64,000 bases of DNA from Cinnamomum chago (Eukaryota; Streptophyta; Magnoliopsida; Laurales; Lauraceae). Positions 24,661-58,228 of this stretch are shown here, piece by piece. Numbering within the stretch: the stretch's first letter is position 1; each line of letters starts with the position of its first letter. The position numbers were made by a program, and so were the translations under genes. The stretch covers positions 30,231,501-30,295,500 of the forward strand of contig CP142455.1 of NCBI GenBank assembly GCA_038049695.1, written 5' to 3'. The notes beneath the pieces were generated by a model. The model saw only the letters and a program-made list of their open reading frames with translations, was not told where the DNA came from and did no database searches.

Positions 24661-24980
24661 TTTTACCTTTTTTTTTCTCTGCTGATTGAAAAGTGAGAAA
24701 AAGATATTCTTCCTTTTAGATAATTTTATCTAAAATATTTTCTAAGTATTTGTGACTATAAAATTTCTTGACTATTAGATTTCAATATTGGAATCACATC
24801 AGATAGTGTTTGGGTAGTAAAATGCTCTTTATAAATATCTTCTTTACTAAACCTCTTAATTTAGCTTTTATGGACCCTTGACCCTGGCTTGGGGGTGTAC
24901 ATTACACATCTTATAGATGGAAAGTGAATTTGAATGGTTTGGATTTGAAAGGTAGTCCCTAAAGAATAAAGATGCACTTG

Positions 24981-29469: not shown

Positions 29470-31674
29470 CTGCTTTTCTGCCCATTTGGTGCTATGCTCT
29501 TATGCTTCTCGATGTTTATCACTTTTTTTTTTCGGCTTTCTAATTACTAGTTTAGATAAATAAGCCACTAGACTACATGTTTACTTATCTGGGCCGGGCC
29601 GGGCCATGAGCAGTGAAATTAGTGTGTAAATAAAGTCATTTTCCCTCACTCATATAAGCCCTATATTTGTAATGAAAACCATTCGGTTTGCTTATTGAAC
29701 TACTAAACCTTTAAAAACTTTAGTCTTCAAAAAACTTTAATAATTTGTGAATAACATCCCAAAGACTCAACCAATTATGAGAAAGAGAAATCCACAGTGG
29801 AAAATTAGGTTGAAGGAAGACTCATTGCTGGCAGAAAATTATGAAATCAAGTTTTTGTGGTGTGATCACAAAATTCTAACACAGAAAATAGGAGAAACTT
29901 AGTAGTCATTCCTCCAATTTGTGTTACATGGGTTCGCATTTCAAACCTCGTGGATGGAGGTTGTTTACAATTTTTTTTTACAACCCTCCATCCGGCTTCA
30001 GGTGGTTTTAAACTAAACAAAAGAACAAAATTAGAAAACTTACATATAACACATGACAAAAAGACTGTAAAAACCATTCTATAGGCCCATGTCCGAGAGG
30101 TTCCTTTTTGCTCGAACATGGGCTTCTGCCTGTTCAAATCTCCGTCCTTCTCCTTTATTTTCTTATTCAAGCTCCTTCGAAGCCTATGTCATGGGTTTAT
30201 GATGGCCTTACTAAGTGTATGGATGAGTGAGCAACAAATTTTATATGAAAAAAGATCATATATGTAGTTTTCTTTTTAAATTTTTCTTTTTTGCTCGTCA
30301 ATGAATTCACTTCATAAATTGGGCTTTTTCATATTAATTCTTTTTGAGTCTTTATTTTGAATTGTATCGTACGACACCAATTTACCCTAGGTCACTATTT
30401 TTGCAGTACTAATTTAGACCACCTAGCCTAAGATAAATTGTATTGATAATGACCCCTTAACCAGTTTTTCCATTCATTCACTGTATAATTTTGATTGATA
30501 GTAATCTTTGACAATCATCACTCATTTATCAAGGACTGTGTGTGTGCAGTCCAAAGGAGTTACTGGTTTATATACCAATGGGTGTTCAAGGTTGTGTCAT
30601 TCTGCACCATGCCGGTACGGAGAACCAGAATGAAGCCAAGAAAGGGGCTTGCACAACCAAGTCTCAAACAAAAACACCCTTACTCCTTTGAGTGAGAAGA
30701 CAAAGAAGAATTATTGAACATTCATTTTGGGTCGAAAAGAGAAGGTAAGGCTGTGAATATCAGTCTCTCCCTTTGGAGGAACATCTCCAGAGGTTGCAGA
30801 CTGAATTTGGGACGATTAAAATGGATGTTGCAGAACTTAGATACAGAAACCTTCTTGAAGAGAGAATTTGAAAAAGGGAGGAATTCTTCTAAGTTTGGAG
30901 AGAATTGGAAAGAGTTAGATGCTTTTGGAGAGTAGGAATGGTTGTATATATCTTTTGGAGAGGATAGGAATGGTGTATATATCTTGAATGGTCACCCAAA
31001 GGCCCTGTTTATAGTTGCCCATTCATCGAGGAAAGAGAATTTGCACCATGCATTTTTAACTTCGGCAGAAAACCTTTTTTGAGGTATTTAAAATCATAGA
31101 CTTTGTTAATGTGGCAATTTAATCTTTCCATAAAAATTACCTGTACACAAACATCCCCCCAAAGGTTATTCATGCGTAACACTTAAATGGTGCAAACTAA
31201 TGACCCCTAAAGATATCAGATCAAAGACTAAGTCTACAAGCCACAATCAAGCACCTACTGATGTCAAATCAAAAGACTTATAGGCTTGACTGATCACATG
31301 GTAGGGTCCATCCATAAATAGCAATTGGGACTGATTTAGACCATGAATAGACATTTCTATATTTCTTGAAGACATGTTTGGCAACCAAAAAAGAATAACC
31401 AACATGTTTACAATTGTAAATCATCCATTATTTGGATCAAAGGAAACTCTTATTTTTTTGAGGATTTTTCTGTCCGACCTCCCCAATATGATTATGACCG
31501 TTAGTCAAGAAAGTCTTAAGCTTATTTTTTTCATTGTGTTTATCTCATTATAGTTTTTTTCCCTGCATATATAGATTTAGTAATTTGAGTTTATTATTTT
31601 CAATACATGTAAATACCCATATCTATTTAATTTTATAAGTATTTGATCAATTTTTAAATATTTTAAAAAAATTC
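29470..31674. other. Intergenic spacer with a possible gene remnant
   Basis: The first part continues block U-like sequence, strongly worn. At about 30535-30940 short frames look protein-like (PVRRTRMKPRKGLAQPSLKQ; then LEEHLQRLQTEFGTIKMDVA and ELRYRNLLEERI in another frame), which may be a decayed exon pair with a coiled coil. Family not recognised. The rest is AT-rich and featureless. Confidence 0.35.
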
Positions 31675-33841
31675 TCCCAAGTCATCATGTTGACTCTCTC
31701 CGAGCTAATTTTTTAGAGTTGGACAAGTAGAGTCCAAGTTACAATTAAGCTTCTAAAAAAAGTCATATAATGATATAACTCAGAGTCTAGGATCCCAAGA
31801 TATAGAAACAAGTGGCAAATCTGTGGACATGATTATTTGGGATGTCAGTAGGGCCTTTCTCACCAGCCACTTACTGGGAAGGTGCCACTAATTGTTGTAC
31901 TTAAGCCTAATTTGAGCTTGACTCAATTGGTATAGTTCGATGGCCTAAATAAAATTTTTAGGGGCTGATTTGGATCCTCATTATCTTCCATATATTTCCA
32001 AATTTACAGGGCATATACCACAACTACAACAAAGGAGGAGGGCTTCCAAGCTTCAAAGAAAACTATGCATTCAAGAACGAATCATGGATGCAACAATTTG
32101 TTTACCAAGTTGTAACTAATTATTACAATTAGTTTTATCTCACCTTTATCATGTTAGTTAGTTATGATGGTCTTATGTGTGGGGACCATTAACTAATTGC
32201 TAACTAACTTACTTAAATCAATAACTAATCATACAACTAGTTATAGATATTTTTCTAGATTGAGCTACATGTAACTAACTAACTAATTAACTTACTGCTT
32301 TAATTTAAATTGCATGTGATGTGCATTTGGCTGAATTGGCGGCCGGTAAGCAAACCTCTTCCTCTTCATTCAAATTATTTTCTTAAATTGGAGGTTTTAT
32401 ATAAAAAAAATCACCTTAAAATTGGATATGCCGAATATGGACCCAAACTTTGAATGTTTTTATTGTGGAGGTAGGGATGGAGCAAATGGGTTGGTTCCTG
32501 GCCGGAATCATATTGGACGAAAAGCAGGTTTAATAAAGGCCGTTCATGTTTAGACTCGAAACCTGTTCATATGATTCCAACAAGAGGACCGAATCTAGGT
32601 TAGGCACCGGTTTGAATTTCTTTTTAATATTTTGTTTTATTTTTCACTTAAAATAGGGATATAATCGGACCAAAAAATTGATAAATCCCAATATATTCAG
32701 AACTAATAAAGAGTTTTTTTTTATTATAAAACCAATATATAGGTTGTTATATAAAGTTTTTAACATTAGCCTATACACAGTCAAGAACCATGTCTTAGAA
32801 AATGCACATCCACAGGCAAGGTAGACACAAGAAAATAACTCAATTGATTCTTTCTTTGAAAAAATGATCATGATAAACTGAATCAAAGAAAAGATTATGG
32901 CGAGGAAGAAGAAGAGGAGAAAGTAAGTGGGAAAAAATACAACGTTCATTGATATCAATGAGCGTCCGCATTATTCAATGAATTTACCCATTATTCATTG
33001 ATATCAGCGAATAAGGGCAAAAAAGGTGAAATACTAGAAAAAATTGGGCCAGAGGTCCCTCCACCGTCAATATTTAGAGTTTGGGCCTATGGTGATCGTA
33101 TCCAATTTTAAGGTGATTTTTTTCGTATAGTCCCCTAAAAATTTACTGAATATTTGATATATCCACATATCACATGCACTTTGATATAGATGGGCCCTAT
33201 TCCCTGGTTATCGGACGGACCCGATCTGGTAAATCTGAGGTTATTCATTGGGTCCCCACGTCGGGACTCGGGACTGGTAAGGACAGCAATCGACAATCTG
33301 GGTTTGGTTGGTTTTGGGCTCCGACCCACATTAAAGTCTGTTAATCTTGACTTGGCTTTAGAGTGGCACAACTATTGGCTGACTCACTATACATTAAATG
33401 TACGTATGTGGGATCAAGCTCGAGCCGAACTCATTGATGTACATAATGTTGAGCGCACCGAAACCTACAATCCACACACCAATTGACACACTCAAATATT
33501 CTGAATAAATTAATTACACGAAGTAAAAAGTGGTCCGGTAATGTGCCTACATCATTCAAAAAATGACTCCGTCGTAGCTTCTTTTGATTGAAATGAATGG
33601 ATATGTATCATCTACAATGCAAGACAAAATCCAACACAGATATACGCACACAAAGAAGATAAGTCTGGCTCAAGTTCGGGCCCTCAAGCTCCACTCAACA
33701 CTCAAGTTGAGCTCAAGCTGTGAATCAGGCAGTGAAGCTTGAACTAAAGCGGGGCTGAGCCTGGATCAGCTCAGATCATTTTCATCCCAATACTCTACTA
33801 GCCGTTTACCCAAGTGTACATAAATATGCATCATGTATGTA

Positions 33842-34220
33842 AGAGCAAGGCTCTCCTAAGCTCAAGCTTAGGAAAAAAATTTCGTAAGCTCATGCTTGTG
33901 GGCCCACCTTTGGTCAATCCAAATGGACCAAACACATGACTTCCCTAAATTACACACGTCCACCAACTTTCGGTCAGATCCGAATTTATTGGACCGTTGG
34001 ATTGACTATGTGTCAATCAAAATGAACCGTTGACCATTAAATTTTTGGGCCCATATGGAGATGATATAAATTGCATTTGGGGCTGATTTTTTGTAGAGAG
34101 GAAGATCCAAGGGAGTCCTTGAAATCCCCCCACCCCCATCTCCATTTGGGTCCCCAGGTGGGCCCCACCACATACTTGAGCTTATCTTATTCTAAGCTTG
34201 AGCTTAGGAGAGCTGACCCC
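33842..34220. mobile_element. hAT-type MITE, 379 bp, in copy A
   Basis: Terminal inverted repeats share GCTCTCCTAAGCTCAAGC at both ends. The 8-bp duplication TGTATGTA flanks it (33834-33841, 34221-34228). Copies B (about 48415) and C (about 54490) lack it at the same place, giving two empty sites. No coding capacity. Its outermost bases do not match well, so the TIR tips are worn. Confidence 0.85.
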
Positions 34221-34346
34221 TGTATGTAATGTATAATTATTATACACCATGGACCAACCTGGACCTACATTATTTACAGCTTTGAAGTTTCATTGTGTAC
34301 CACATCAGTTTTTTTTTCCTCACTTTCTCAACGTCATTGGAGGAGG

Positions 34347-34755
34347 CAGTGGCGGACCCAGGATTTTGATTCGAGGGGGCCTGACGATGGTCAAAAATCA
34401 GTTTCCTACTCAACTCAAATGTTTATAAAAAAAATCTCCGATGTTTACAAAAGTACACCCTAAATCTAAAAATTATATAGACAGAATAATTTCAGAATTC
34501 TAAAGAATATTTTTCAAATGATCACTTAATTTGCATAATAAATTAAAACCATTCAAATGATCACTTAATTTCTGTTGATTTGAGGACTTTTTGAGAGAGA
34601 GGAAGAGAGGATTTCTGCCATTTCTTTGAAGTTGAAGAAAGGGAGGGGGGCTTGATGGGTTTCTTAAGTGGGGGCTGGGCCAAAAGGATCTAATAGCCCA
34701 TTATGGGCCTTTTCAGTTTGGGTCTGGGGGCTTCTTCTACGTCAGTCCACCCCTG
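34347..34755. mobile_element. hAT-type MITE, 409 bp, copy A (shared with B)
   Basis: Starts CAGTGGCGGACCCAGGATTT and ends ...TCCACCCCTG, inverted as CAGGGGTGGACTG. The 8-bp duplication GGAGGAGG flanks it (34339-34346, 34756-34763). The same element sits at the same place in copy B, while copy C and the truncated U fragments at about 41865 and 50025 have one GGAGGAGG and no insert. No coding capacity. Confidence 0.9.
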
Positions 34756-34763
34756 GGAGGAGG

Positions 34764-35695
34764 AGAAAGTCACAAGTGTAAAATCCAGAGAGTATACTAG
34801 TGTCAAGTCGGACTAGCCAATACATCCACAGATTAAACTGATGAGTTGGGGCATTTCTTGCATTTGAATGCACAAAGAAAATATAAAAGACAAACTCTAT
34901 GGAAAATCGTGCATGCTATTTTAATGCCATATGGTGCGATGCTTTTCCATGTCAAAAGTAAAAACATGAGTTGTTTTCAATGTGAAAATTATTTCTAAGG
35001 GGAAAGGTCGAAACTGAATAAATGAAGATTGTGAAATTTCAAAATAATGCAATAATAACCCTTTTTTTTTTCTTTTCTTTTTCTTCTTCGTCGTCTTCTT
35101 CATCTTCTGGCTATGTTGGATTGCTGGTCAGGTGTGATAATTTTAACTTGAGCGCCCAAGGATCGAGGACTTATTTCTTAATTTAAAATATTTATATCTA
35201 GAGAATTTCTTAGTTTTGAGACATGCAGAATTCTTAAATTCTCCTTTTTTAGTTGAACATTTAAGAATTCTACCAAGAAAAATAAAGAGACTGAAATTAT
35301 TCTAATATTCTCTTAATTCGTAAAGAAACATGCCCACATGAGTACTTTATTGCCCCATCGTTGCAGTAACGATAAGTGGTAAAGTAGAATATCGATTTTA
35401 TAAAAGAAGGGTCTCCAAAGACTAAAAGTCCTTTCGGTGGGCCATCATTCCCATATGCTAGTCGGGCCTAGGACTAGACAGTGCGTTAGTTGAAACGTGA
35501 AAGAAGAGTGGTTGTCATCGTCACAATGGTTTGATGTTCTCTCTCTCTTTCCAGTTTCCACACGTTAGGCCCATCATCGGTACGGTGGACCTATGATTTT
35601 GATGGTCAATTAATACTTTAAAGTATCTTTTTATTTTTCTTTTTTTTCTCTACTGACTGAAAAGTGAGAAAAAAGATATTTTTCCGTTTAGATAA
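34764..35695. repeat. Block U, copy A
   Basis: Same order of marks as the 23.9-kb copy, but much closer to copies B and C. Runs from GAGAAAGTCACAAGTG to GTTTAGATAATTTTATCTA, where the 6-kb MULE is inserted; the continuation resumes at 41717. Confidence 0.85.
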
Positions 35696-36851
35696 TTTTA
35701 TCTAGGGACATTTACTAGAAAAATCTCACTAATTAGGATAACTATAACTAAGGACCCTAAAAATTTTTAATATCAGCAACGGACCTCCCTCCAAAATCCC
35801 ATTATTTCATTCCGTCTTTGCCCCCCAGAAGAGAAAAAAACGATGGCTCACCCAAATCGGCAGTGAGAAGAGAAAAGAAGAAGGAGAAGAGAAAGCAGCT
35901 ACCATCTTCTCTCTTTCTATACTGCTGTCCAGACCCTCCCACCAGCGTCAGGTATGCTTCTCTGACACTCTGACCTTATTTTTCCCACTGACTGCAACCC
36001 GCTCCCCTTTGGTGAAAAATTGGGTTTTTGGTGAAAAATTTAAAAACCAACCACATCGCCATCACCACCACTGTTATTTTGTGGCTGTCGCCATCATCAT
36101 CACCAACTTCGGTATAGATTCACCACCAGCACTCCATTACCACCACCATCTTCATGACCATTGTTATGGTTATCTCAGCATCTCTGAATGCGTCATGGTT
36201 TTATCAAAACACCCAACAAGTGCGAAAAAGAACACGGCATCAATACTATTAAAACCAGAGTTAGGAAAAACCATGAATTAGCCGGAGAAGACGTTATGAG
36301 AGTTGAATGTGGCCCATGCATCCTGTGGTAACACCAAATTATCATCTCAATGGAAAATAGTGAGTAATTAAACAAATCATTAGAAATTTCCATGTTGGCC
36401 GTCTAGTCTTTAAGGTCTGTTTGGATGTGTCACCATTTCAACTGTGGTTTTTAGTTGAGTCCATTGCTATCTTACTTGTGTTTGTGTGAAAGTCGACACA
36501 GACATGCATTTGATTGCACATGATATTATTTTGGAGCAGCAGAGTAACTCACACAGTAAGAGATGATCCAACATTTCTTCTGTCATAAAATCTTAACACC
36601 TACAATCTAGTGCACATCCAAACAGACCCTTTTCAAACACAAGTGATTTTTAAATTTTTCAAAGAAGAATTGGAAATTTAGATTCTTGAAGAGGTAGAAG
36701 TCAAAAATTAAGTTTCCAAAAATCAGTTAGTACTACATAGAAATGGTTCTTTCAACACCCCAGTTATGCTCTGGTCTCTTTATTCTACTAGTGCTCATCT
36801 ATTTATCTGCTTATAGTTGAAGTAAACAGGCACCTGGAGTAAGGCAAAGAC

Positions 36852-37200
36852 CTTTCTGCCTTGTACTTTTGAGGAGTTGTTGCGCCCTTCTGTTGCAATT
36901 TGTCTGGGTGAAGGCAGAGTCTTGCTTTCTGATATGCTTTCTTCACTTGTGATGTTTCAATAATATTGGTCAGGGAAATGGCACGCCATCCACTACCGGG
37001 CCACAATATCAATATCCAACATGGAGAATTGATCAAATAAAGGAGCAAAAAGGCATCTCTATCGTTGCAAAGTGCCTTTAGTGGTGAATAACTCTGTATG
37101 GGAGATTTACATATTGTAGTGTTGAGAGTAATGAGCGAATATTTCCTTCCTTCCCTGCCGACCAGTTCTTTATGTCTTCCTCAAGTAGCTTGAATTCCAT
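36852..37200 (-). pseudogene. JAC1-like: Captured J-domain fragment (JAC1/auxilin-like) in the MULE
   Basis: JAC1-type proteins are auxilin-like J-domain proteins, known from Arabidopsis for chloroplast photorelocation. Minus-strand exon 37200-37111 reads MEFKLLEEDIKNWSAGKEGN then IRSLLSTLQY and stops at a GT donor (GTAAATC). After an intron-like gap, about 37006-36852 reads LWPGSGWRAISLTNIIETSQ, then VKKAYQKARLCLHPDKLQQK with the HPD motif of J domains, up to QKYKAER and a GT. The 3' border of the gap has no clean AG, so that splice site is probably lost. Only the J-domain part is present. Intron-like sequence indicates genomic capture. Confidence 0.85.
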
Positions 37201-37393
37201 CTACAATATTTTTACATATATATAAATTACAACAACATATGGTAATAAACTCTTGAGTCTCTTTTACATACACACACATGGCATGCCAATATCTAAACAC
37301 TGGTGTCTCCAAAGCCATGGTACAGCTGGGAAACCTTATCGTTCCTCTCAGATATAACCTACAATAGGGGCTACTGTCAAAAAATTAAACAAA

Positions 37394-37398
<5 letters not shown>

Positions 37399-37423
<25 letters not shown>
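37399..37423. repeat. (CA)n microsatellite
   Basis: About 12 CA units inside the MULE. Confidence 0.9.
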
Positions 37424-37424
<1 letters not shown>

Positions 37425-37805
37425 CAGAAAACAAATAGATAAAAATCAAGCCTTTTGTTAAATAATGAATCACAAACTTTGGAGAGGGAAAAATGGAAAA
37501 TGAACAGACTTCAAATGTTGTTTTTGGGTAATTATTACTTAGGTACTTGGTCAATGCTTCAACTGGCAACCTAGGACGGAGACTTGTTATTGAATCCTTT
37601 GGTTTTGTAATTTTGTTTGTTTAGGAGCAAACCATTCTAATGGTTAAATGTCTTCTTCATATTGCAGAATTCTTTCTGCAAATCTATAATTTCTTTTACT
37701 TTTTTTAAGTTCCTATTTTGAAGGAAATGATGCATAAAACCAAGGCAGTTAATGCATGAACTCATTCATTTCTTGGTAATAGCCCAGAAATTTTAACTTT
37801 CAATA

Positions 37806-38435
37806 GCAAAATATTGCGGAATGCTTAAACAGTCTAATGAAGCACAATAGAGAGCTTCCGATATCAAAACAAGTCGATGGGATTCGTGGAAAGTTAATGG
37901 ATTTTTTCCATCATCGGAGGACTACGTTGATGCAGCTGAAGACACGTCTAACTCCTTGGGCAGAAACCATTCTAAGCAAATCTATGGAAGGATCCCGACG
38001 TTTGAATTGTCGACAAGCAGGTCCCAATGAATTTCAGATACAGTCTTGGGAGTTCATTGATGTTGTTCAGCTAGATAGAAAAAGTTGTACGTGTCAGATG
38101 TGGCAACGATTGGAATTCCGTGCGAGCATGCCTTGTCAGTCATGAAAACCAGAGGCCTGGATCCATATGATTTTTGCGAGGATTGGTACACATGTGATAC
38201 ATACAGAAGGACTTATGGTCATGTAATACATCCAACCCGCGATATACGCCAATGGGAGCACATTACTAACGAGGTGGTCAAGCCTCCACTTGCTACCAGA
38301 CAGCCTGGACGTCTAAAGAAGAATAGAATTCGCACGGAAGACCTTAATCGGCAAAGAAGACAAGTAAGGTGCTCTATTTGTAAAAAAAGGGGTCACAACC
38401 GACAAAAATGCCGGAATCCACCAGTGGGAAGTTAA
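37806..38435 (+). pseudogene. MURA-type transposase C-terminal part, one frameshift
   Basis: Reads NIAECLNSLMKHNRELPISK after an acceptor-like CAATAG, then VDGIRGKLMDFFHHRR, the SWIM zinc-binding motif (SCTCQMWQR then IGIPCEHALSVMKTRG), YRRTYGHVIHPTRDIRQWEH and a CCHC knuckle CSICKKRGHNRQKC before the stop. That is the normal C-terminal order for a plant MuDR-family transposase. The frame shifts by one base inside the SWIM motif near 38105-38115. The DDE catalytic region was not found upstream, so this is the last exon of a truncated gene. Confidence 0.85.
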
Positions 38436-38806
38436 TCCATGATGGCGAAACGATGGAGCCATGTCTTTTGAAGTGGTCTGATCAAGTACCATTTTTTTTT
38501 TTTGGCTTGTAAAGGTTGTTCCATGTAATTTTTTTAAAATGTGGCTACATGTGGTTCCTACATGTATTTGCTGTACTTTTGTATATGGTGCCTACATTTG
38601 TAGTAGGAGGAACGATGTCCTATAATTTTTTGTAAAGGGTGTTGGTGGATCTACCTCTTTCATTTAATAGCAGACCAATGTTTATCTTTTATAATGGGAT
38701 GGATAGAATGGTTGGATAATGTTCTTTCATGATCATTGATGTATGTTCTATTAATGGATCACTGCATGGATATCTTTTTAACAAGGCGGTTCAAAATGTG
38801 TCACAG

Positions 38807-38973
38807 TTTTCGTTGATGTCAACTAACGATTTGTCGACATCAACAAATAAATTTGTTGATATCAATGAAAGCGTACTGATAGCAGCTATCTGTGCAGAAA
38901 TAAAAACACATTATTCGTTGATATCAACTAAAGATTTGTCGACATCAACAAATAAATGTGTTGATAACAAATA
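38807..38973. repeat. Two-unit copy of the ~105-bp TTGATATCAA repeat
   Basis: Two diverged units of the array at 40256-40785, starting TTCGTTGATGTCAAC and TTCGTTGATATCAAC about 104 bp apart. Each has GTCGACATCAACAAATAAAT and GAAAGCGTACTGATAGCA or its worn form. Confidence 0.85.
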
Positions 38974-39844
38974 AAAATTGAACTTTCTTTTCCAGGGGCT
39001 CTGTTTTGGAAGGCTGGGAGTCCTCATCTTTTTTTCTTTTTTGTTTTTCTGAAATGTTTTTCTTTTCCAACTACCCAATTGGTAGAACATCTACGTACCT
39101 ATCCAAGCCCTCTTCAAAACAGTCACTATTAATTTCAAAATGTAAGTTTGTGTGTTCAGAATATGTAAAGGCATTTGTGCTACGACCATGCTAATAATAG
39201 TCATCACCCAGGCAAAAAGAATCATGACCATGAATTAGACATCTCAGACAAAGAACATGGTTAAATGAAAGGAGAACATAGACAGATCTCATATTGGGGC
39301 ATAAATTGTGAGGGGAATAAGACTTTGATCAGTGTATCAATACCAACAAATCAAGAGAGGAAGGTTCATATCAACTCAGTCTGCCACCATAAAAGATGCC
39401 AATAATCCAAATGAAAGTAGCAAGATGATGAAGCCAAATAACTCCCCACATGTCATCACTTCCCCATGTGAAGGTCCCAAATTCAACCCCTCTTCTCACC
39501 CTCTTTCCCCACTTTCTTTATTCTCTTCAATCCCAATTCAATTTCTGCTGTATTTTCCAAAACAAAGTGTTAAATATAAGATTATATAACTAAATAAGCT
39601 GTAAGCATCTCCCCAATCAACTTCTATATGAACTGAGATAAAAGATAGCACTGCCCTACAAAACCAAAATTGATGAAAGACAGAACCCTTGAGAGTTGAG
39701 GTCAATAAATGAAAAAAAAATGATAGAAGTGCTCCAATGAAGTGTTCCAATGACAGACTTTCTGTAGAAGAAAACATATGCGACACTTTCTGTAGAACAA
39801 AAATTGATGTACAATCTCAACTAATAAACAATATGAAGAGAAGT

Positions 39845-40200
39845 ACTACCCTCAGGAAGTTCTGGCAGCACAAAATGGGGTACAAAGTGTCTTTGCTGCT
39901 CCCGTTTCTCCCTTGGTTTGTGCTTTGACATCGATTTCAACTTCATGTAACAGAAATAAAAAGGAAATTAATCCAGTGAGATTGCGTGCAATTTCAACAT
40001 TTTTAGGTCTAGACTTCAGAATAACCAAATAAAAAGGAAAGGAACCCCTGCGTTTTGCTTCTTGTTTACTTTTGTCATATTATTTTATCCATTTTAATGT
40101 AGAATTCCATGGTGCAAGGATCATCTTTTTCTCGTTAAGAGCTATAACAAACTCATCCCATGTCTTTACAACTTTAATGCAAGCATCTCTTTTTTGCTTT
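39845..40200 (-). pseudogene. Captured prolyl-tRNA synthetase C-terminal fragment in the MULE
   Basis: Eukaryotic prolyl-tRNA synthetase charges tRNA-Pro. Minus-strand exon 40200-40106, after an acceptor TATTTTAG, reads KRDACIKVVKTWDEFVIALN then EKKMILAPW. After a gap of about 160 bp, 39944-39845 reads EVEIDVKAQTKGETGAAKTL then CTPF, and in a shifted frame VLPELPEG. Those are successive pieces of the C-terminal region of cytosolic-type plant ProRS. One frameshift separates CTPF from LPELPEG, and the final YWGRSY-type end is absent. The gap is probably a retained intron with worn borders. Confidence 0.8.
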
Positions 40201-40255
40201 CTAAAATAGCAAGAGAATACCATAGAACATTGTAAGCCTGGGAAATAAAACACAA

Positions 40256-40785
40256 CATTCGTTGATGTCAACTAAAAATTCGTCGACATCAACGAATAAA
40301 TTAGTTGATATCAATGAAAGCGTACTGATAGCACATATCTGTGCAGGAATAAAAACACAACATTCGTTGATGTCAACTAAAAATTTGTCGACATCAACGA
40401 ATAAATTAGTTGATATCAATGAAAGCGTACTGATAGCACATATCTATGCAGGAATAAAACACAGTATTCGTTGATGTCAACTAAAAAATCGTCGATATCA
40501 ACGAATAAATTAGTTGATATCAATGAAAGCGTACTGATAGCACATATCTATGCAGGAATAAAAAACACAGCATTCGTTGATGTCAACTAAAAATTCGTCG
40601 ACATCAACGAATAAATTAGTTGATATCATTGAAAGCGTACTGATAGCACATATCTGTGCAGGAATAAAAACACAGTATTCGTTGATGTCAACTAAACATT
40701 CGTCGATATCAATGAATAAATTAGTTGATATCAATGAAAGCGTACTGATAGCATATATCTGTGCAGGAATAAAACACAGCATTCA
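40256..40785. repeat. Tandem array, five ~105-bp units rich in palindromes
   Basis: Units begin near 40256, 40361, 40465, 40571 and 40676. Each carries CGTTGATGTCAAC, TCGTCGACATCAACGA, TTAGTTGATATCAATGA, then GAAAGCGTACTGATAGCACA. The 105-bp period is a multiple of three and both strands stay open across much of the array (plus strand STSTNKLVDINESVLIAHIC), but this follows from the repeat and is not evidence of coding. Confidence 0.95.
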
Positions 40786-41229
40786 TTGTGAAAATCATAC
40801 ATATTGCCTGGAGAGTTTTATCCCCTGAATCATACATATTGCTTGGAGATTTTCATACATATATATTAGATAACATCAATTAAATGGTTTTGGCCAATTC
40901 CAATGAATGGCTAGAGATGGATGTGTGAGGGGAATAAGCAAGCCCCCAGTGCCCAGAGAATACAAGAAGTCCAATGAGACAAATTAATAATATTACAAAG
41001 ATAAAGCCAACCCAAACAAAAAATTCTGTATAAAATTTCTCATGCTCCTCATTAAATATTAACATCACTTAGATGGACAACCTGTTTGTTAACATTTCCA
41101 GCAGTCATTATGGATTTTCACATTGATTAAAAGCCTTCCAACATACAAGACCAAAATGAAACCAATAGTGGCTTTCAGTTTTAACATGTCAACCATCCAA
41201 AATACATCAGGCCAATAGTCACAAAGAAA

Positions 41230-41625
41230 GGCCAATGGTCGATGAGAACCCAACCCTTCCCTTCCTTCTTTTCTTTCTTCTATTTCTTTTGTGACTGGAG
41301 ATGGAAGTGAGCTTGGTTCTCCTTCTTCTGTTTCTTCTTTCCTTTTTTCTGTTGTTGCTTTCATCCCTGGACTGGGATTAGGGTCTCGTTGGCATCAGCT
41401 AAGAAAAAGGTAAAATGGGAAAAAGCTTGGTCGATGAGAACCCAACACTTCCCTTCCTTGTTTACTTTCTTCTGTGACCAGTTCTGGAAGTGATTTTGGT
41501 TCTCATTCTTCCTTTTCTTCATTCTTTTTCTTCTTGTTGTTTTCGTCCTTGGACTTGGCAATTGCGATTGTGTCTCGTTGGCTAAAGTTAAGAAAAGGGT
41601 AAAATGGTAAAAAAAAGTGTAGATT
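41230..41625. repeat. Direct duplication of ~200 bp near the MULE right end
   Basis: GGTCGATGAGAACCCAAC ... TTCCCTTCC ... GTGAC...GGAAGTGA...TTGGTTCTC ... GTCTCGTTGGC...AAGTTAAG/AAGAAAAAGG occurs at about 41237-41440 and again at about 41431-41625, diverged by perhaps a fifth. Confidence 0.7.
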
Positions 41626-44043
41626 TTGGGGGGGAGGTCCTTGCCTGATATTATAACAATTTAGGGGTCTCAACAGTGGTTACCCTATTTAAGGAATTTT
41701 TTTTAGTAAATGTCCCTTTTATCTAATACATTTTCTAAGTATTTGTGACTATAAAATTTCTTGACTATTAGATTTCAATATTGGAATCACATCAGATAGT
41801 GTTTTGAAAGTAAAATGCTCTTTATAAATATCTTATTTTTTCCACACTTTCAAAAACGTCATTGGAGGAGGAGAAAGTCACAAGTGGAAGAAAATCTAGA
41901 GATCAGTATACTAGTGTCAAGTCGGACTCGCCAATACATCCACAAATTAATTAAACTGATGAGCTGGGGCATTTCTTGCATTTGAATGCACAAAGAAAAT
42001 ATAAAAGACAAACTCTATGGAAAATCGTACGCATGCTATTTTACTGTCATTTGCTGCAATGCTTTTCCATGTCAAAAGAATAAACATGAGTTGGTTTCTA
42101 TGAGAAAAATCATGTTTTTAACCGAATGGGCACACTGACTCTCACCGAACCAACTTCGGTTCAAAATCCAACTCTCTCCCAACTCATCATGTTGACTATC
42201 TCCAAGCTAATTTTTTAGAGTTGGACAAGTAGAGTCCGAGTTACAATTAAGCTTCTAAAAAAAGTCATATAATGATATAATTCAGAGTCTAGGATCTCAA
42301 GATATAGAAACAAGTGGCAAATCTGTGGACATGATTATTTGGGATGTCAGTAGGGCCTTTCTCACCAGCCACTTACTGGGAAGGTGCCACTAATTGTTGT
42401 ACTAGATGGGCTTAAGCCTAATTTGAGCCTGACTCAATTGGTTTAGTTCGATGGCCTAAATAAAATTTTTAGGGGCTGATTTGGATCCTCATTATCTTCC
42501 ATATATTTCCAATTAAATCTACAGGGCATATACCACAACTACAACAAAGGAGGAGGGCTTCCAGGCTTCAAAGAAAACTATGCATTCAAGAAGGAATCAT
42601 GGATGCAACAATTTGTTTACCAAGTTGTAACTAATTATTACAATTAGTTGTATCTCACCTTTATCATGTTAGTTAGTTATGATGGTCTTATGTGTGGGGA
42701 CCATTAACTAATTGCTAACTAACTTACTTAAATCAATAACTAATCATACAACTAGTTATAGATATTTTTCTAGATTGATCTACATGTAACTAACTAACTA
42801 TCTAACTTACTACTTTAATTTAAATTGCATGTGATGTGCATTTGGCTGAATTGGCGGCCGGTAAGCAAACCTCTTCCTCTTCATTCAAATTATTTTCTTA
42901 AATTGGAGGTTTTATATATAAAAAATCACCTTAAAATTGGATATGCCGAATATGTACCCAAACTTTGAATGTTTACTGTGGAGGTAGGGATGGAGCAAAT
43001 GGGTTGGTTCCTGGCCGGAATCATATTGGACGAAAAGCAGGTTTAATAAAGGCCGTTCATGTTCAGACTCGAAACATGTTCATATGATTCCAATAAGAGG
43101 ACTGAATCTAGGTTAGGAACCAGTTTGAATTTCTTTTTAATATTTTGTTTTATTTTTCACTTAAAATAGGGATATAATCAGTCCAAAAATTTGATAAATC
43201 CCAATATATTCAGAACTAATAAATAGTTTTTTTATTATAAAACCAATATATAGGTTGTTATATAAAGTTTTTAACATTAGCCTATACACAATCAAGAACC
43301 ATGTCTTAGAAAATGCACATCCACAGGCAAGGTAGACACAAGAAAATAACTCAATTGATTCTTTCTTTGAAAAAATGATCAGGATAAACTGAATCAAAGA
43401 AAAGATTATGGCGAGGAAGAAGAAAAGTAAGTGGGAAAAAATACAACGTTCATTGATATCAATGAGCGTCCGCATTATTCAATGAATTTACCCATTATTC
43501 ATTGATATCAGCGAATAAGGGCAAAAAAGGTGAAATATAACAAAAAAATTGGGCTGGAGGTCCCTCCACCGTCAATATTTAGAGTTTGGGCCTACGGTGA
43601 TCGTATCCAATTTTAAGGTGATTTTTTTCGTATAGTCCCCTAAAAATTTACTAAATATTTGATATATCCACATATCACATGCGCTTTGATATAGATGGGC
43701 CCTATTACCTGGTTATCGGACGGACCCAATCTGGGAAATCTGAGGTTATTCATTGGGTCCCCACGTCGGGACTCGGGACTGGTATGGACAGCAATCGACA
43801 ATCTGGGTTTGGTTGGTTTTGGGCTCCGGCCCACATTAAAGTCTGTTAATCTTGACTTGGCTTTAGAGTGGCACAACTATTGGCTGACTCACTATACATT
43901 AAATGTATGTGGGATCAAGCTCGAGCCGAACTCATTGATGTACATAATGTCGAGCGCACCGAAACGTACAATCCACACACACAAAGACACACACTCAAAT
44001 CCTCTGGATAAATTAATAAGTGGTTCAGTAATATGCCAAAATT

Positions 44044-44520
44044 CACTACAACAAACTGCATTTTCAGCGACGAAATTTTTCGTCGGTAAAATTTTTACCG
44101 AACCAAGACACACACTCAAATCCTCTAGATAAATTAATAAGTGGTTCGGTAATATGCCAACATTCACTACAACAAACTGCATTTTCAGCGACGAAATTTT
44201 TCGTCGGTAAAAGTCATGAAATCGTCGGTTAAATTTTTACCGAACCAAGACACACACTCAAATCCTCTGGATAAATTAATAGGTGGTTCGGTAATATGCC
44301 AACATTCACTACAACAAACTGCATTTTCAGCGACGAAATTTTTCGTCGCTAAAAGTCATGAAATCGTCGGTAAAATTTTTACCGAACCAAGACACACACT
44401 CAAATCCTCTGGATAAATTAATAAGTGGTTCGGTAATATGCCAACATTCACTACAACAAACTGCATTTTCAGCGACGAAATTTTTCGTTGCTAAAAGTCA
44501 TGAAATTGTCGGTAAAATTT
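44044..44520. repeat. Four-fold tandem reiteration of a CACTA left end plus host flank
   Basis: CACTACAACAAACTGCATTT begins at 44044, 44165, 44307 and 44449. Each is preceded by ATT and by the same 60-bp host flank (CACTCAAATCCTCTGGATAA ... GGTTCGGTAATATGCCAAC). The unit is 121 bp once and 142 bp twice. The flank matches the unoccupied sites in copies A (33495-33550) and C (54175-54240), so it is genomic DNA next to the insertion that has been amplified together with the element's tip. Confidence 0.93.
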
Positions 44521-47500
44521 TTACCGACGAAAATATTTTCGTCGCCCAGATGTCGGTAGGAGAAAAAATTTTACCGACGAAAACATATTTCGTTGGTAAA
44601 AATTTAACTTTTACCGACGATTATTTTTAATTTACCGACGTTTTTTTCGTCGGTAAAAATATTTTAATTTTCTAAAAATTTATATATATAAACATTACCG
44701 ACGTTTTTTTTTCGTCGGTAAAATAAAAAAGAAAAAAGAAATAAAAAATCAGAATAATTTTACCGACGTTTTTTTTCGTCGGTAAAATAAAAAATAAAAA
44801 AGAAATAAAAATCAAAATAATTTTACCGACGTTATTTTTCGTCGGTAAAATAAAAAAGAAAAAAGAAATAAAAATCAAAATAATTCTACCGACGTTATTT
44901 TTCGTCGGTAAAATAAAAAAGAAAAAAAAATAAAAATCAAAATAATTTTACCGATGTTTTTTTTCGTCGGGAAAATAAAAAAGAAAAAAGAAATAAAAAT
45001 CGTAATAATTTTACCGACGTTTTGTTTCGTCGGCCAAATGAAAACCAAAAATAAAGAAATAAAAAAATATTTTTACCGGCGTGTTTTTGCGTCGGTAAAA
45101 GAAAACCGAAAAAACAAAATAAAAAAGAAAAGATTTTTGCCGACGGTTTATTTCGTCGGTAAAAAAATTTTTAAAAATAAATCCTCTTTCACCGACGATT
45201 ATTTGCGTCGGTAAGAAACTGTTTTTATTTTTTATTTATATTTTAATGTTTCTTTTGCCGACGAAAAGAACGTCGGTAAAGATGTTTTATTTTTTAAAAT
45301 ATTATATTTGTTTTTTAAATAGAGTTTTCCTGTAAACCTGCTTATACAATGTACCTGTATTCAATTTAAAAAATGCATACAAAAAAAACTTGCTAAATAA
45401 ACAAACAACCACCATCACCATTTTTCATCAAATCATTCATCTCATAAACCAAATATTACAATCATTAATGACAAATGTCCAATATACATATACAAATAAA
45501 CAAAAAAAAAAGAAAACACCTCCCAAAAGTCTGCAACCGACCCCAAAGCGTTAATCAATCTGCAATGAAAAAAACAACATTAGAAACTTTTCAATGAACT
45601 AAAATATAAATGAAAGATAATAATGTATATATATATATATAAATCCTTTCCTAATTTCTTTGGCGGCCTGTTTTTTTCCAGCCTCAGTGTTGAGAATCAG
45701 GCGGTTTTTGTGTATAATTCACTAACCGAAAGTCCGATTCACTAACCTGGTTGGAAGATTCAATTCAAGCCAAACAAAGAAGAAAAAAAATTGCAAAAGA
45801 AAATCCAGCCATATGAGGGACATCCAAGGTAAGGGAATTTCAAGCATTGCACACAAAAGTGGGACCCATCATGTGTTCCAATTGATAATACAAATCTGAA
45901 TTTCAGATTTGGAATTATTTAAGCCAATATGTAATTTGAGAAATTTCTTAAGAGGGGAAGGGGGGCCAGATTTAGATAGATTCAAATTTTTAAGTAATAC
46001 AAAGTAAAAATTGTTAGGTAAAGGTCTCTGATTTTTAATTTTCCTAAAAATAAAATTAGACTTTACCGACGTTTTTTGTAAAACGTCGCTAAAAGTTAAT
46101 TTTAATATTTAGTTTCCCAAAAATGAAGTTAATAATAAAATTGAACTTTGCCAACTTTTTTTTCGTCGGTAAAAGAAAAATAAATAAAAAAGACTTTTAC
46201 AAACGGTTTTATTTCATTTACTAATTGAAGTTTATTCATGACTTGGGAAAATTCCTTAAATGTTTTTTTCCCCACCGCAGGCATCATAGCCCATCAAACA
46301 AGCACAAGTAACCATTCGGTAGATTTTCATTGATCAACAGTGGTTGATTAATTGGTTTACACATAATCAATTAAGTATGGGTCCTATTTTAATTAGAGTG
46401 AGATACAACTTACAATATTATCTAAAAGGAGAATGAAACTATTATTTTGAGCAGTTTTGATTCATTATAGTTGTCGTTGTCATCATAATCAACGCCTTGA
46501 CAAGCTGCTACGTGAATTTTGTGTCTGTCATTGGAATTCATTATAGTGAACGCTAATAGTATTTTTATATTTTTATAAAATTTTAAAAATTTATGCTTTA
46601 AACAATATTTGAGTATTTACAAATTTAAGATTTTTATTAAGATATTAATAGAAAAACCTGCAAAAGAACTTGACATTAAATAATTAGTAATGAATTAATA
46701 AATGAAAATTGTTATTGGTCAATAATCGCTTACCCCCTTCTAAAAGCAAATCATGCCTCCTCCATTGACTACGACTATGATCAGGAGCATTGTACTTAGT
46801 ATTCTTTCATTCATGGAAGGAATTTGATCCTCATTCCGTGATCCAAAGGGTTTGGATGAAGAATGTGGGCCCCATAGTGGATGGATTTTACATAGATGGC
46901 GAATGTCGATACGAAACATGGGATCCAAACTTTTTGCACTCATGCATTCTTTAACCAGCTGAGGTATGGCTGGGGATGAATGAATTATATTTTACTACCA
47001 CCATGTTACCTTGAAAGAAGCATTACCGTCGACCCATGTCAGATTATGAAGATGTATTACAGGTTTCCTTAAGAACTCTACATGTCAAATTTTAGTCAAG
47101 ATATAGTCTTTTACAGACGTTTTCTATAAAATGTTGGTAAAAGTTGGCGACAGAATTATATGTCGGTAAAGAATACTCTTTACCGATGAATTTATAAAAT
47201 CGTCGCTAAAAGTACAGTTTGTTATAACCAAAGAAAGTAGGAAAGACTTTAAGTTTCAATACACCACCTGAAACTCACCGTGCTATTGCAATCTTTGTTT
47301 TTTCCATTCGCCCCTTGTAGGAAGCGTGGTTCAACTTCCTTTATTGAGCTCGACTTTTATTTTGGATTTTTGTCACTGAGTTTGGTTTTTTTATTAGTTC
47401 CCTCTGATTTTTTTAATACCTACCCTATCTCATCTTCCTCTTTTTCTTAGTTTTTAAAACCCACTTCTTTTTCCTGTAATGAAGTATGAAATGGGCAGTT

Positions 47501-48124
47501 ACTGACACCCATTTTTTAGTTTATATACAATTATAATTTAATTTTAAAATTCACATTTTACCGACGTTTTTAGCAAATACGTCGGTAAAATAAAATTTTG
47601 CCGACGTTCAATGACATTTTCCGACATTTCAAAAACGTCGGAAAAGTGTTTTCCTTAGTCTTTATACAATCAGGATTAAATTTTAAAATTTGCATTTTAC
47701 CGACGTCTTAACTATAAACGTGGTAAAATAAGACTTTCACCGATGTTTTTAATAATAACGTCGGCAAAATTGCCCTTTGCCGACGTTTTAAAAACGTCGG
47801 CACAAGTATTTTGCTTACTTTTTATAAAATTAGAATTTAATTTTAAATATCGCCTTTCACCGACGTTTTTAATTAAAACGTCGGTAAAAACTATAGTTTG
47901 ACTGAAGTTTTATATTAAACGTCGGTAAAAGTCAATATTCCCGACGTTTATAAAACGTCGGTAAAAATTTATTTTTCTATTTTTGTACAAATATTTTTAA
48001 TTTTATAAACTGTCTTTTACCGACGTTTTTTTTATTAATTTTCGTCGGTAAAATGTGATCTTTACCGACGAATTTATGAAAATGTCGCTAAAATTCGTGG
48101 CTGAAAGTGCATTTTGTTGTAGTG
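44449..48124. mobile_element. Non-autonomous CACTA element, 3.7 kb, in copy B
   Basis: Left end CACTACAACAAACTGCATTT; inverted right end CACTACAACAAAATGCACTT. ATT flanks both ends, and the empty sites in copies A and C confirm the insertion. The left subterminal zone (44690-45060) is a tandem array of six or so units of about 63 bp, each TTTACCGACG + TCGTCGGTAAAA + an A-rich spacer; the right zone (47540-48090) has similar facing pairs. The interior (45300-47100) has no transposase or recognisable gene. It belongs to the same group as the 14.4-kb CACTA by its ACCGACG motif, which could supply the transposase. Confidence 0.92.
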
Positions 48125-48534
48125 ATTATTCAAAAAATGACCCCGTTGTAGCTTCTTTTGATTGAAATGAATGGATATGTATCATCTAGAATGCAAAACA
48201 AAATCCAACACTAAGATATAAGCACACAAAGAAGATAAGTCCGGCTCCAGTCCGGGCCCTCAAGCTCCACTCACACTCAAGTTGAGCTCAAGCTGTGAAG
48301 CAGGCAGTGAAGCTTGAACTAAAGCGGGGCTGAGCCTGGATCAACTCAGATCATTTTCATCCCAATACTCTACTAGCCGTTTACCCAAGTGTACATAAAT
48401 ATGCATCATGTATGTAATGTATAATTATAATACACCATGGACCCAACCTGGACCTACATTATTTACAGCCTTGAAGTTTCATTGTGTACCACATCAGTTT
48501 TTTTTCCTCACTTTCTCAACGTCATTGGAGGAGG

Positions 48535-48944: not shown

Positions 48945-48952
48945 GGAGGAGG

Positions 48953-49840: not shown

Positions 49841-52048
49841 CTGTAAAGTGAGAAAAAAGATATTTTTCCGTTTAGATAATTTTATCTAATACATTTTCTA
49901 AGTATTTGTGACTATAACATTTCTTGACTATTAGATTTCAATATTGGAATCACATCAGATAGTGTTTTCAAAGTAAAATGCTCTATAAATATCTTATTTT
50001 TTCCACACTTTCAAAAACGTCATTGGAGGAGGAGAAAGTCACAAGTGGAAAATCTAGGGATCAGTATACTAGTGTCAAGTCGGACTGGCCAATACATCCA
50101 CAAATTAATAAAATTGATGAGCTGGGGCATTTCTTGCATTTGAATGCACAAAGAAAATATAAAAGACAAACTCTATGGAAAATCGTACGCATGCTATTTT
50201 ACTGTCATTTGGTGCAATGCTTTTCCATGTCAAAAGAATAAACATGAGTTGGTTTCTATGAGAAAAATCATGTTTTTAACCGAATGGGCACACTGACTCT
50301 CACCGAACCAACTTCGGTTCAAAATCCAACTCTCTCCCAACTCATCATGTTGACTATCTCCAAGCTAATTTTTTAGAGTTGGACAAGTAGAGTCCGAGTT
50401 ACAATTAAGCTTCTAAAAAAAGTCATATAATGATATAATTCAGAGTCTAGGATCTCAACATATAGAAACAAGTGGCAAATCTGTGGACATGATTATTTGG
50501 GATGTCAGTAGGGCCTTTCTCACCAGCCACTTACTGGGAAGGTGCCACTAATTGTTGTACTAGATGGGCTTAAGCCTAATTTGAGCCTGACTCAATTGGT
50601 TTAGTTCGATGGCCTAAATAAAAATCTTAGGGGCTGATTTGGATCCTCATTATCTTCCATATATTTCCAAATCTACAGGGCATATACCACAACTACAACA
50701 AAGGAGGAGGGCTTCCAGGCTTCAAAGAAAACTATGCATTCAAGAAGGAATCATGGATGCAACAATTTGTTTACCAAGTTGTAACTAATTATTACAATTA
50801 GTTGTATCTCACCTTTATCATGTTAGTTAGTTATGATGGTCTTATGTGTGGGGACCATTAACTAATTGCTAACTAACTTACTTAAATCAATAACTAATCA
50901 TACAACTAGTTATAGATATTTTTCTAGATTGATCTACATGTAACTAACTAACTAACTAACTAACTTGCTGCTTTAATTTAAATTGCATGTGATGTGCATT
51001 TGGCTGAATTGGCGGCCGGTAAGCAAACCTCTTCCTCTTCATTCAAATTATTTTCTTAAATTGGAGGTTTTATATAAAAAAAAATCACCTTAAAATTGGA
51101 TATGCCGAATATGGACCCAAACTTTGAATGTTTATTGTGGAGGTAGGGATGGAGCAAATGGGTTGGTTCCTGGCCGGAATCATATTGGACGAAAAATAGG
51201 TTTAATAAAGGCCGTTCATGTTCAGACTCGAAACCTGTTCATATGATTCCAATGAGAGGACTAAATTTAGGTTAGGAACCGGTTTGAATTTCTTTTTAAT
51301 ATTTTGTTTTATTTTTCACTTAAAATAGGGATATAATCGGTCCAAAAAATTGATAAATCCCAATATATTCAGAACTAATATATAGTTTTTATTTCATAAA
51401 ACCAATATATAGGTTGTTATATAAAGTTTTTGACATTAGCCTATACACAGTCAAGAACCATGTCTTAGAAAATGCACATCCACAGGCAAGGTAGACACAA
51501 GAAAATAATTCAATTGATTCTTTCTTTGAAAAAAATGATCATGATAAATTGAATCAAAGAAAAGAGGGATTTATAAGGCCTCCAGTCCATCAACTTTTCC
51601 TCTAAGGCCTGTAGTCCATACAGTTGGACATATTTCGGCGAGAGGTCCCTAGATACAATTTTCATGACTGATTTACCCTTTCAACTGTTTTAAGCATAAA
51701 ATTTTGAATTTTAAAATTTCAAATATTCCTTTCCCCCTCCTCATTCCTAGGTAGACGAGATTCAATCGTAAGGATTTTTGAACCCCTTTCGGCGATGGAT
51801 GGGCAGCCCTGGTACCAAAGGTTCTTCCTTTTTCTTCGGTGATTGTTGCCGGACACTGCACGTAACCACGTTGCAGAGGAAACAAAGTTCTCCGTTGGTT
51901 CTAAAGAGGAGAAAATAAAACAAGTCAGGGACTTGGTTTCCAAATCCAAGAAGATAGTTAGTGATGATGTGAGAGAAAAGGAATATAAGACCCTTCTCTG
52001 TTCGCATCTCCACCTTTCTCTCAGAGAAAAAAGAAGAAAAAACTCGCC

Positions 52049-56149: not shown

Positions 56150-58228
56150 AGAAAAGTGAGAAAAAGATATTTTTCCTTTTCAAAAGTTCAATATTGTAAT
56201 CCTATAATCCCCCCTAGATAATTTTATCTAAAACACTTTCTAAGTATTTCTAACATCCAGGGACTAGAAACTTTCTTGACTATTAGCTAGATTTCAATAT
56301 TGGAATCACATCAGATAGTGTTTTGAAAGGAAAATGCTCTTTGTAAATATCTTCTTTACTAAACCTATTAATTTAGCTTTTATGGACCCTTGACGGTTGC
56401 TTGGAGGTGAACTGTGTACTGTACATATCTTATAGATGGAAAGTGAATTTGAATGGTTTGGATTTGAAAGGTGGTCCCTAAAGATGGACTTGAAGTGATA
56501 AATTATGCACACATAAATTGTTTATTACTAAATGATTAATCTAATATTAAGAACTTTCATTATTGTTATTTTGAAATTCTTTTTCAGTGTATATCTTAAT
56601 TATCATTATCTGCAACAACTTAGTTTAAAATCTGTTGCATTCATTAAGATTTTCTAAACATTAAATAATATAATACTTCTTTATTGCATTATTCCGCTCT
56701 AAATTATTTTACTCTATTAGTATTTAAACCTATAATATTTTGCTCTACACATATCCAAATGGTCCCTTGGAGATGGTTTTGGCTACATGGAATCTTCCTT
56801 TAAAGGATCCATGATTTAAAACTAGAAGTAGAGATTTAACTATGACGTAGTATATGAAAATAAAGTTTTTAAATGGTCAAAACCATTGGAAGTTTGTTAG
56901 GTTATTACAAATTTAATCTAGATCTTTCATCAATTTAGGCAAATTGAGCAATTTTTAATTAGCATTAGAAGGATTAGGCTAGACCAACTGTTCCAAGGCA
57001 CCAATTTCACTTGATGTGGTCATGTGTTTGAGCTGTTTGATCTGATTTTTCAAAAAATAAATAAGATATTTAATGAAGAAAACATGATTTGTTTGGGAAT
57101 AAATCTTTTTATATTAAATCTAAACATATTTAGCTCTCTTTATTTTTCTCTGGATCAGTAACTATAAATTATATTAAAATTTAGAAAGTAACAACAAATA
57201 AGCTCCACAAGAGATCGAGTATAAAGTTCAATTGTCTAGTGTCCACATAAACCGATTGGCTGTAGTCCTTGTGTCAATAAGATTTTCACATCAAAAGATG
57301 TGACGAGTGACAACCTGTCCTATGAAAAAAGAGGCATTTTTTCCCTTAATTTGATTTTTACATGGGTTCTTAGAAAACGAGAGAAAGACTTGAAAATTCC
57401 ACATAGACTTTGAAATTTCAAAGGAAAGACCTAGAAGTCTCTACTTGATTTTGAAAATTCTTTCTTTTCTTATCTTCCAAAGATTGATTTAGTCCCAACA
57501 CATGGTGGTCTGCCCCTAACACGCGTTTGTGCATCATGCAATCTTTTGGAAGTGGAGCGGAAAAGTTTGGTTCTTTCTATAGAAAAAAGCACTTATGTTA
57601 GGTGAACATTTGTCAACAAAAGAAAAGAAAGAAAAAGATTTTTCTAGTGACAACTATATATTTTTTTTCCATAGGGACAATATATTGCATTGACTCCAAA
57701 GTCTAGCCACATTCTTTCTCCTAAAAAAATACAGCCATATACAGATATACAATGTTTTTCGGTGCCAGCAAGATTATTTTTTTATTTTTTTTTTCTACAG
57801 GAAAAATATATTTTATTGACTCTAAAGCATGGTATTATATTTTATTTTATTTTCAAATTTTTAACATTTTTTTAAAAAAATTAAAATTTTCTTATAATTC
57901 TTAGAATCGAGTAGGCTGTACCCGTCCGGCACTGGTGGTCCCGACGGGCACGAAGACCGGGACCGAAATATAAAACCCTGCTCCAAAACATACTTTCACC
58001 ACAAAATAATAAATAAATAAAGAAAATCTAGTCACATACATGATACAAGCTCAGCCTTATTATATTCACCACAAATATCCATGGAAAATTTTATACTTTT
58101 TAAGTAGACAACCAGTCAATGCCCTTGCCCGGCTGCCCACTTGCCCACTTGCCCACATTGAAGAGAAATTGAGTTGTGAATGGAGGGAGTGGTTGTCATC
58201 GTGAGTCGTGACAGTTGTTTTTTGATGT
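56150..58228. repeat. Diverged duplication block V and its downstream part
   Basis: Parallels 24700-28900: AGATAATTTTATCTAAAAC, then block V at 56493-57830, then GACCGAAATATAAAACCCTG and GGAGTGGTTGTCATCGTGAG. It lacks the 605-bp hAT element and has only one V copy. Non-coding. Confidence 0.75.

What the first reader, a model, noticed from the sequence alone, without database searches (positions are those of the whole stretch)
35705..41716. Pack-MULE with two unrelated captured genes plus its own transposase tail
Seen: exact 9-bp duplication and about 95-bp terminal repeats enclose a J-domain (JAC1-like) fragment and a prolyl-tRNA synthetase fragment, both on the minus strand, and a MURA C-terminal exon with SWIM and CCHC motifs on the plus strand. 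Known: Pack-MULEs normally lack transposase sequence. Inference: a degraded autonomous element that also captured genes, an uncommon combination. Both fragments run antisense to the transposase.
Basis: partly seen in the sequence, partly recalled or inferred. Interest (0 to 1): 0.75.

Follow-up and report, generated by a model that had tools for sequence, protein, structure and literature searches.

The report
Jumping gene carrying two stolen fragments
A plant Mutator-type jumping gene, now apparently unable to move itself, carries broken pieces of two unrelated genes next to the last piece of its own transposase, and neighbouring copies of the same DNA show where it landed; this is a clean example of something already known.

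Summary
A 6,012-bp Mutator-like element (MULE) lies at 35705-41716, with an exact 9-bp duplication (TTTTATCTA) and roughly 95-bp inverted ends, about 76% identical. On the minus strand it holds genomic fragments of a JAC1/auxilin-like J-domain gene (two exons and the intron between) and of a prolyl-tRNA synthetase gene. On the plus strand it holds the last mudrA exon (SWIM, CCHC), frameshifted; six-frame Pfam scans found no catalytic domain. New proof: the target lies in a tandem array, and other array copies are empty sites with one TTTTATCTA, cleanly at 49880 and 24724, less cleanly at 56222. The nearest empty copy differs from the flanks by 2.6%, the two ends from each other by 24%. So the ends were probably unlike before landing, and the element probably moved in trans; gene conversion in the array is a caveat. 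Elements with both a transposase gene and captured gene pieces are in print (KI-MULE; ULP-bearing MULEs; a grapevine family with cellulose-synthase exons), as are multi-gene Pack-MULEs. Host, sister copies and parent genes could not be examined: no genome is held. New member of a known kind.

The parts
35696..35704 (.). target site duplication, copy 1 (TTTTATCTA)
35705..35798 (+). left terminal inverted repeat, begins GGGACATTTACTA
36414..36628 (.). nested MITE-like segment with inverted GGTCTGTTTGGATGTG ends; no clear target duplication
   Evidence: sequence, by eye
37111..37200 (-). captured JAC1/auxilin-like gene, upstream exon (..LLEEDIKNWSAGKEGNIRSLLSTLQY), followed by a GT donor
   Evidence: 3ag7, E 1.4e-7
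36834..37009 (-). captured JAC1/auxilin-like gene, J-domain exon; frame shifts by one base near its 3' end; GT donor follows; no AG acceptor is seen at its start
   Evidence: 3ag7, E 1.1e-16
37807..38435 (+). last exon of mudrA (MURA C-terminus: SWIM, CCHC), preceded by an AG acceptor; one frameshift near 38110; no catalytic exon found upstream
38795..38970 (+). 105-bp tandem repeats, block A (about 1.7 units)
39850..39944 (-). captured prolyl-tRNA synthetase gene, second exon piece (EVEIDVKAQTKGETGAAKTLCTPF...), frame broken; weak support on its own
40107..40200 (-). captured prolyl-tRNA synthetase gene, first exon piece (KQKRDACIKVVKTWDEFVIALNEKKMILAPW); its donor site is not recognisable
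40241..40788 (+). 105-bp tandem repeats, block B (5.2 units), same orientation as block A
41236..41613 (+). two tandem subterminal copies of about 190 bp, 77% identical
41622..41716 (-). right terminal inverted repeat
41717..41725 (.). target site duplication, copy 2 (TTTTATCTA)
49880..49888 (.). closest empty site: single TTTTATCTA in the paralogous array unit 48409-51565
24724..24732 (.). second empty site in the array
56222..56230 (.). third, more diverged empty site; an extra stretch of a few tens of bases lies just left of it

Best explanation
This is a composite, non-autonomous Mutator-like element: a descendant of a mudrA-bearing MULE that lost the body of its transposase gene and took up two host genomic fragments (JAC1/auxilin-like and prolyl-tRNA synthetase). 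The J fragment keeps an intron, so it was copied from DNA. Shown: boundaries, target duplication, contents, broken frames, and paralogous target copies without the element. Inferred: that the ends had diverged before this landing and that it was moved in trans by a related transposase; that the fragments came in by gap filling or template switching during repair of breaks in the element. The J fragment sits where the upstream mudrA exons would be expected (recalled gene layout), and the prolyl-tRNA synthetase fragment lies between two blocks of one tandem repeat. The gene pieces are pseudogenic; any effect today would be through transcripts or small RNAs, which is untested.
For: Duplication and ends. 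In a scan for nested pairs of direct repeat plus inverted ends, this pair is the only one with a 9-bp repeat and 13 of 14 matching end bases. Empty sites with a single TTTTATCTA at 49880 and 24724, and a less clean one at 56222. Flanks differ from the nearest empty copy at 83 of 3,146 sites, the ends from each other at 23 of 94: at most about 2.5 end differences expected since insertion, P 4e-15. Gene pieces. mudrA exon. No catalytic transposase domain in six frames at E up to 1. Repeat blocks on both sides of the ProRS piece.
Against: No sister copy, parent gene or host genome could be searched, so capture by this family, order of events and mechanism are not shown. The six-frame scans were insensitive: they gave the real SWIM only E 0.96 and DnaJ 0.041, so a diverged catalytic remnant could be missed. 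The repeat blocks do not meet in phase (about 35 bp of a unit missing). Gene conversion in the array could make the insertion look young; bounds from other array copies give P 1.4e-5 and 0.002, and the largest divergence measured, 0.225 over 165 sites of the left flank against the 55458 stretch, would not exclude divergence after landing. The ends may never have been identical.
Confidence: 0.85

Rival explanations
1. The mudrA exon is itself a captured piece: an ordinary Pack-MULE that picked up three fragments, one of them from another MULE.
For: The exon begins right after an AG acceptor and nothing upstream matched MURA, as with the host fragments.
Against: It lies in sense orientation with a 3' region before the right end, as a MULE's own gene would (recalled layout); no sister is at hand to decide.
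Confidence: 0.2
2. The element was autonomous when it landed and lost its catalytic exons in place.
For: One frameshift in 629 bp could have arisen after insertion; deletions cannot be dated here.
Against: The ends differ by 24% and the flanks by 2.6% from the nearest empty copy, so its ends were probably already diverged on arrival; this says nothing direct about the deletion.
Confidence: 0.12
3. The two gene pieces entered as later nested insertions of other elements, or as repair patches, after this MULE had landed.
For: A MITE-like segment is nested at 36414-36628. In the scan one candidate, an 8-bp repeat AAAACACA at 38903 and 40562 with 10 of 14 matching end bases, does frame the ProRS piece.
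Against: That candidate's two halves are copies of the same 105-bp repeat, which explains the match. Of the other four extra candidates, three lie inside block B and one is weak (35758/38972). Ten shuffles gave 0-2 candidates each against 6 observed. The scan covered only repeats of 3 (TTA/TAA), 8, 9 and 10 bp.
Confidence: 0.2
4. The boundaries are a chance pairing and the region is a patchwork of unrelated debris.
For: The ends are only about 76% alike.
Against: The copies at 49880 and 24724 lack exactly the segment between the two TTTTATCTA plus one of them.
Confidence: 0.01

Closest known systems
Pack-MULEs (rice and other plants)
   Same: MULE ends, 9-bp target duplication, host gene fragments, no catalytic transposase found; fragments of several genes in one element are known (PMC9168764 passage).
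   Different: Keeps a recognisable mudrA last exon (629 bp); 6 kb against the usual 2-3 kb given in PMC9168764.
KI-MULE and other ULP-bearing MULEs (Arabidopsis, melon, rice, grapevine)
   Same: Captured host sequence together with mudrA, in Arabidopsis in reverse orientation to it (PMC2528002 passage).
   Different: Those families carry a ULP protease domain; here the captured genes are others and all coding pieces are broken.
Grapevine Mutator family with cellulose-synthase exons and introns
   Same: Element family that took up exon and intron sequence of a host gene (PMC2528002 passage).
   Different: One gene source named there, two here; relation of the elements not tested.
Abermu MULEs of barley
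   Same: Large MULE with an extra reverse-strand reading frame that its authors consider possibly captured (PMC9168764 passages).
   Different: Hvu_Abermu keeps transposase domains including DDE and is called likely autonomous.

Membership tests
Mutator-like elements (MULEs) | target duplication of 9-11 bp (PMC3310237 passage) | tested here: met
   exact 9 bp; single copy in the empty sites
Mutator-like elements (MULEs) | long terminal inverted repeats, typically 100-500 bp (PMC3310237 passage) | tested here: inconclusive
   about 95 bp and 76% identical: between TIR-MULEs and the non-TIR-MULEs with short, less similar ends (PMC3903597 passage)
Mutator-like elements (MULEs) | mudrA-type transposase gene or remnant (SWIM, CCHC; recalled as MURA marks) | tested here: met
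   SWIM E 2.7e-8 on the exon read across its frameshift; CCHC below cut-off
Pack-MULE | carries host gene fragments between its ends | tested here: met
   J-domain firm; ProRS weaker
Pack-MULE | non-autonomous (no functional transposase) | tested here: met
   no catalytic domain in six frames, exon frameshifted; scan of limited sensitivity
Pack-MULE | no transposase match, as packFinder sorts them (PMC8903248 passage) | tested here: inconclusive
   the 629-bp mudrA exon is longer than that pipeline's 250-bp limit, so it would probably be filed as autonomous or derived; its BLAST step was not run
Pack-MULE | fragments match parent genes elsewhere in the same genome | not testable with these tools
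   no genome held for the window
KI-MULE (ULP-bearing MULE) | ULP1 protease domain | tested here: not met
   no such Pfam hit in six frames at E up to 1

The most novel reading that the evidence does not exclude
This element is a fossil of the step from autonomous MULE to Pack-MULE: break repair replaced its catalytic exons with one host gene fragment, a second break took in another, and the crippled product, with ends already about 24% unlike, was still moved by a foreign transposase. Such intermediates would be under-counted, because a survey pipeline files elements with a transposase match as autonomous.
Probability: 0.3. Interest if true: 0.45.

Novelty: new member of a known kind. Interest (0 to 1): 0.3.

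Why it matters
It is a well-delimited case in which an internal control, empty target copies in the same 64 kb, helps to separate what happened before insertion from what happened after. It points to a small blind spot: a pipeline that sorts elements by transposase match first (PMC8903248 passage) would probably not count this element's captured genes. How such elements acquire sequence is described as not yet understood or perplexing (PMC3310237 and PMC8277862, passages and abstract start); composite elements with sisters would help to test it.

Tried and rejected
Nested CACTA element around the ProRS piece: CACTA occurs at 35727, 36991 and 39124 and TAGTG at 36358, 36608, 36789, 37079, 37117 and 41166 inside the element; no CACTA stands just left of block A, so no pair frames both blocks. 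Chance boundaries: rejected by the empty sites. The sixth TTTTATCTA (26013) is not a paralogous site; its flanks do not align. Sister copies: the exact 13-bp end occurs once per side in the window; with up to two mismatches there are two further matches, 4 in all against 1.84 expected, within chance. MURA piece in viral contigs: two pattern matches, none confirmed. End pattern in viral contigs: none; in genome contigs: four matches in bacterial records, not followed, taken as chance without a computed expectation. MURA exon DNA in plasmids: none. Weak Pfam hits below cut-off and set aside: VPS8_N, zf-HC5HC2H_2, zf-C2H2_10, zf-CHY, VEGF_C, Peptidase_M16. tRNA and Rfam scans of the window: nothing. 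Paper searches; 'Mutator-like' with 'prolyl-tRNA synthetase' gave no paper; of the listings I saw only titles and starts of abstracts. Papers opened: seven, passages only, none in full.
Full report
WHAT WAS CHECKED. The window looks like plant DNA: a subtilase gene at 18342-21376 and CACTA tnp2 transposase domains at 5145-7325; 36.9% G+C. That these mark a plant is my judgement. No genome is held for it, so sister copies and parent genes could not be searched; what follows rests on the window, the PDB, Pfam and papers.

BOUNDARIES. The element runs from 35705 to 41716 (6,012 bp), flanked by TTTTATCTA at 35696-35704 and 41717-41725. Both ends begin GGGACATTTACTA. The end repeats differ at 23 of 94 ungapped columns. 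Their local alignment scores 73, against at most 34 in 200 shuffles.

EMPTY SITES. This is the strongest new result. In a self-comparison the left flank 34221-35717 matches 48409-49900, and the right flank 41717-43405 matches 49880-51565: the two flanks are adjacent in the other copy. The alignment shows one TTTTATCTA and no element at 49880, and the same at 24724. At 56222 the site is also single and the right side aligns, but a few tens of extra bases lie just to its left. Of six TTTTATCTA in the window, two are the duplication, three are these sites, and one (26013) is unrelated. The element therefore inserted into one unit of an existing tandem array.

RELATIVE AGE. Against the 49880 copy, the left flank differs at 49 of 1,475 sites and the right flank at 34 of 1,671. 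With the 54612 unit as outgroup, 13 of 773 columns changed on the filled side, 9 on the empty side and 44 on the outgroup's. If the ends had been identical on arrival, at most about 2.5 differences would be expected now; 23 are seen (P 4e-15). Gene conversion may rejuvenate array units. With the 54612 unit as bound 8.1 are expected (P 1.4e-5), with the 24724 left flank 11.6 (P 0.002). Other distances run from 0.055 (24724 and 56222, right sides) to 0.225 (left flank against the 55458 stretch, 165 sites); the last would not exclude divergence after landing. So the ends were probably, not certainly, unlike before landing. Movement in trans follows by inference from the lack of a catalytic domain.

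CONTENTS. (a) J-domain gene, minus strand: an upstream exon ending ..RSLLSTLQY at 37111 with a GT donor (3ag7, E 1.4e-7), intervening sequence, and the J-domain exon 37009-36834 (3ag7, E 1.1e-16). The frame shifts by one base before ..VFALLQ, where the 3ag7 chain reads FELLQE, and a GT donor follows. This is a DNA-level copy of two exons with the intron between. (b) Prolyl-tRNA synthetase gene, minus strand: pieces 40200-40107 and 39944-39850. The first alone hits ProRS chains at E 0.0056 and Pfam ProRS-C_1 below its cut-off. The second alone hits nothing. The join reaches E 7.1e-6, its second piece adding 5.9 bits. That it resembles the cytosolic plant enzyme is recollection, not a test. (c) mudrA last exon, plus strand, 37807-38435, after an AG acceptor; read across one frameshift it has SWIM at E 2.7e-8. 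Six-frame scans found no other transposase domain at E up to 1, but gave the real SWIM only 0.96, so they are not very sensitive. (d) 105-bp repeats in two blocks, 38795-38970 and 40241-40788, in the same orientation on either side of the ProRS piece. (e) A MITE-like nested segment, 36414-36628.

HOW IT PROBABLY AROSE. The J fragment stands where upstream mudrA exons would be expected, and the ProRS fragment lies between two blocks of one repeat. Both fit repair of breaks inside an element with copying from other loci (gap filling or template switching), the models discussed in PMC8277862 (passages). About 35 bp of a repeat unit is missing between the blocks, so it is not a clean insertion. 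Another route, aberrant excision of closely spaced elements, has been proposed for Pack-CACTA elements (PMC13317346 passage) and is not excluded. Parent genes and sisters would be needed to choose.

COMPARISON. [quoted passage not shown] this element fits. Some contain fragments of several genes (PMC9168764 passage). Elements with both transposase gene and captured sequence are in print: KI-MULE with its protease domain in reverse orientation to mudrA, similar MULEs in melon, rice and grapevine, and a grapevine Mutator family with cellulose-synthase exons and introns (PMC2528002 passages; PMC13317346 passages). The combination is thus a known kind. The packFinder rule, which files any element with a transposase match over 250 bp as autonomous or derived (PMC8903248 passage), would probably hide cases such as this.

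VERDICT. Observation confirmed and strengthened by the empty sites; interpretation right in substance but the combination is not unusual. Interest modest.

Noticed in passing
24500-27600, 31673-35704, 41717-44017, 48125-51565, 54060-57840: Tandem array of related units, about 78-98% identical between copies, roughly 4 kb each by subtraction of inserts, into which the MULE and a CACTA element both inserted. Its nature is unknown; one open frame in it (43695-44132) had no Pfam hit.
   Followed up: partly
44044-48124: CACTA-type element with CACTACAACAAA..TTTGTTGTAGTG ends and apparent ATT target duplication, inserted in the same array; a paralogous site without it lies near 33550.
   Followed up: partly
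360-8735: Possible large CACTA element: CACTACAAGAA at 360 and GTAGTG at 8730, tnp2 transposase domains at 5145-7325.
   Followed up: no
38795-38970 and 40241-40788: The 105-bp repeat units hold inverted TTCGTTGATGTC..GACATCAACGAA pairs; perhaps protein-binding repeats, untested.
   Followed up: no
18342-21376: Subtilase gene on the minus strand, in two open frames (an intron or a break between them).
   Followed up: no
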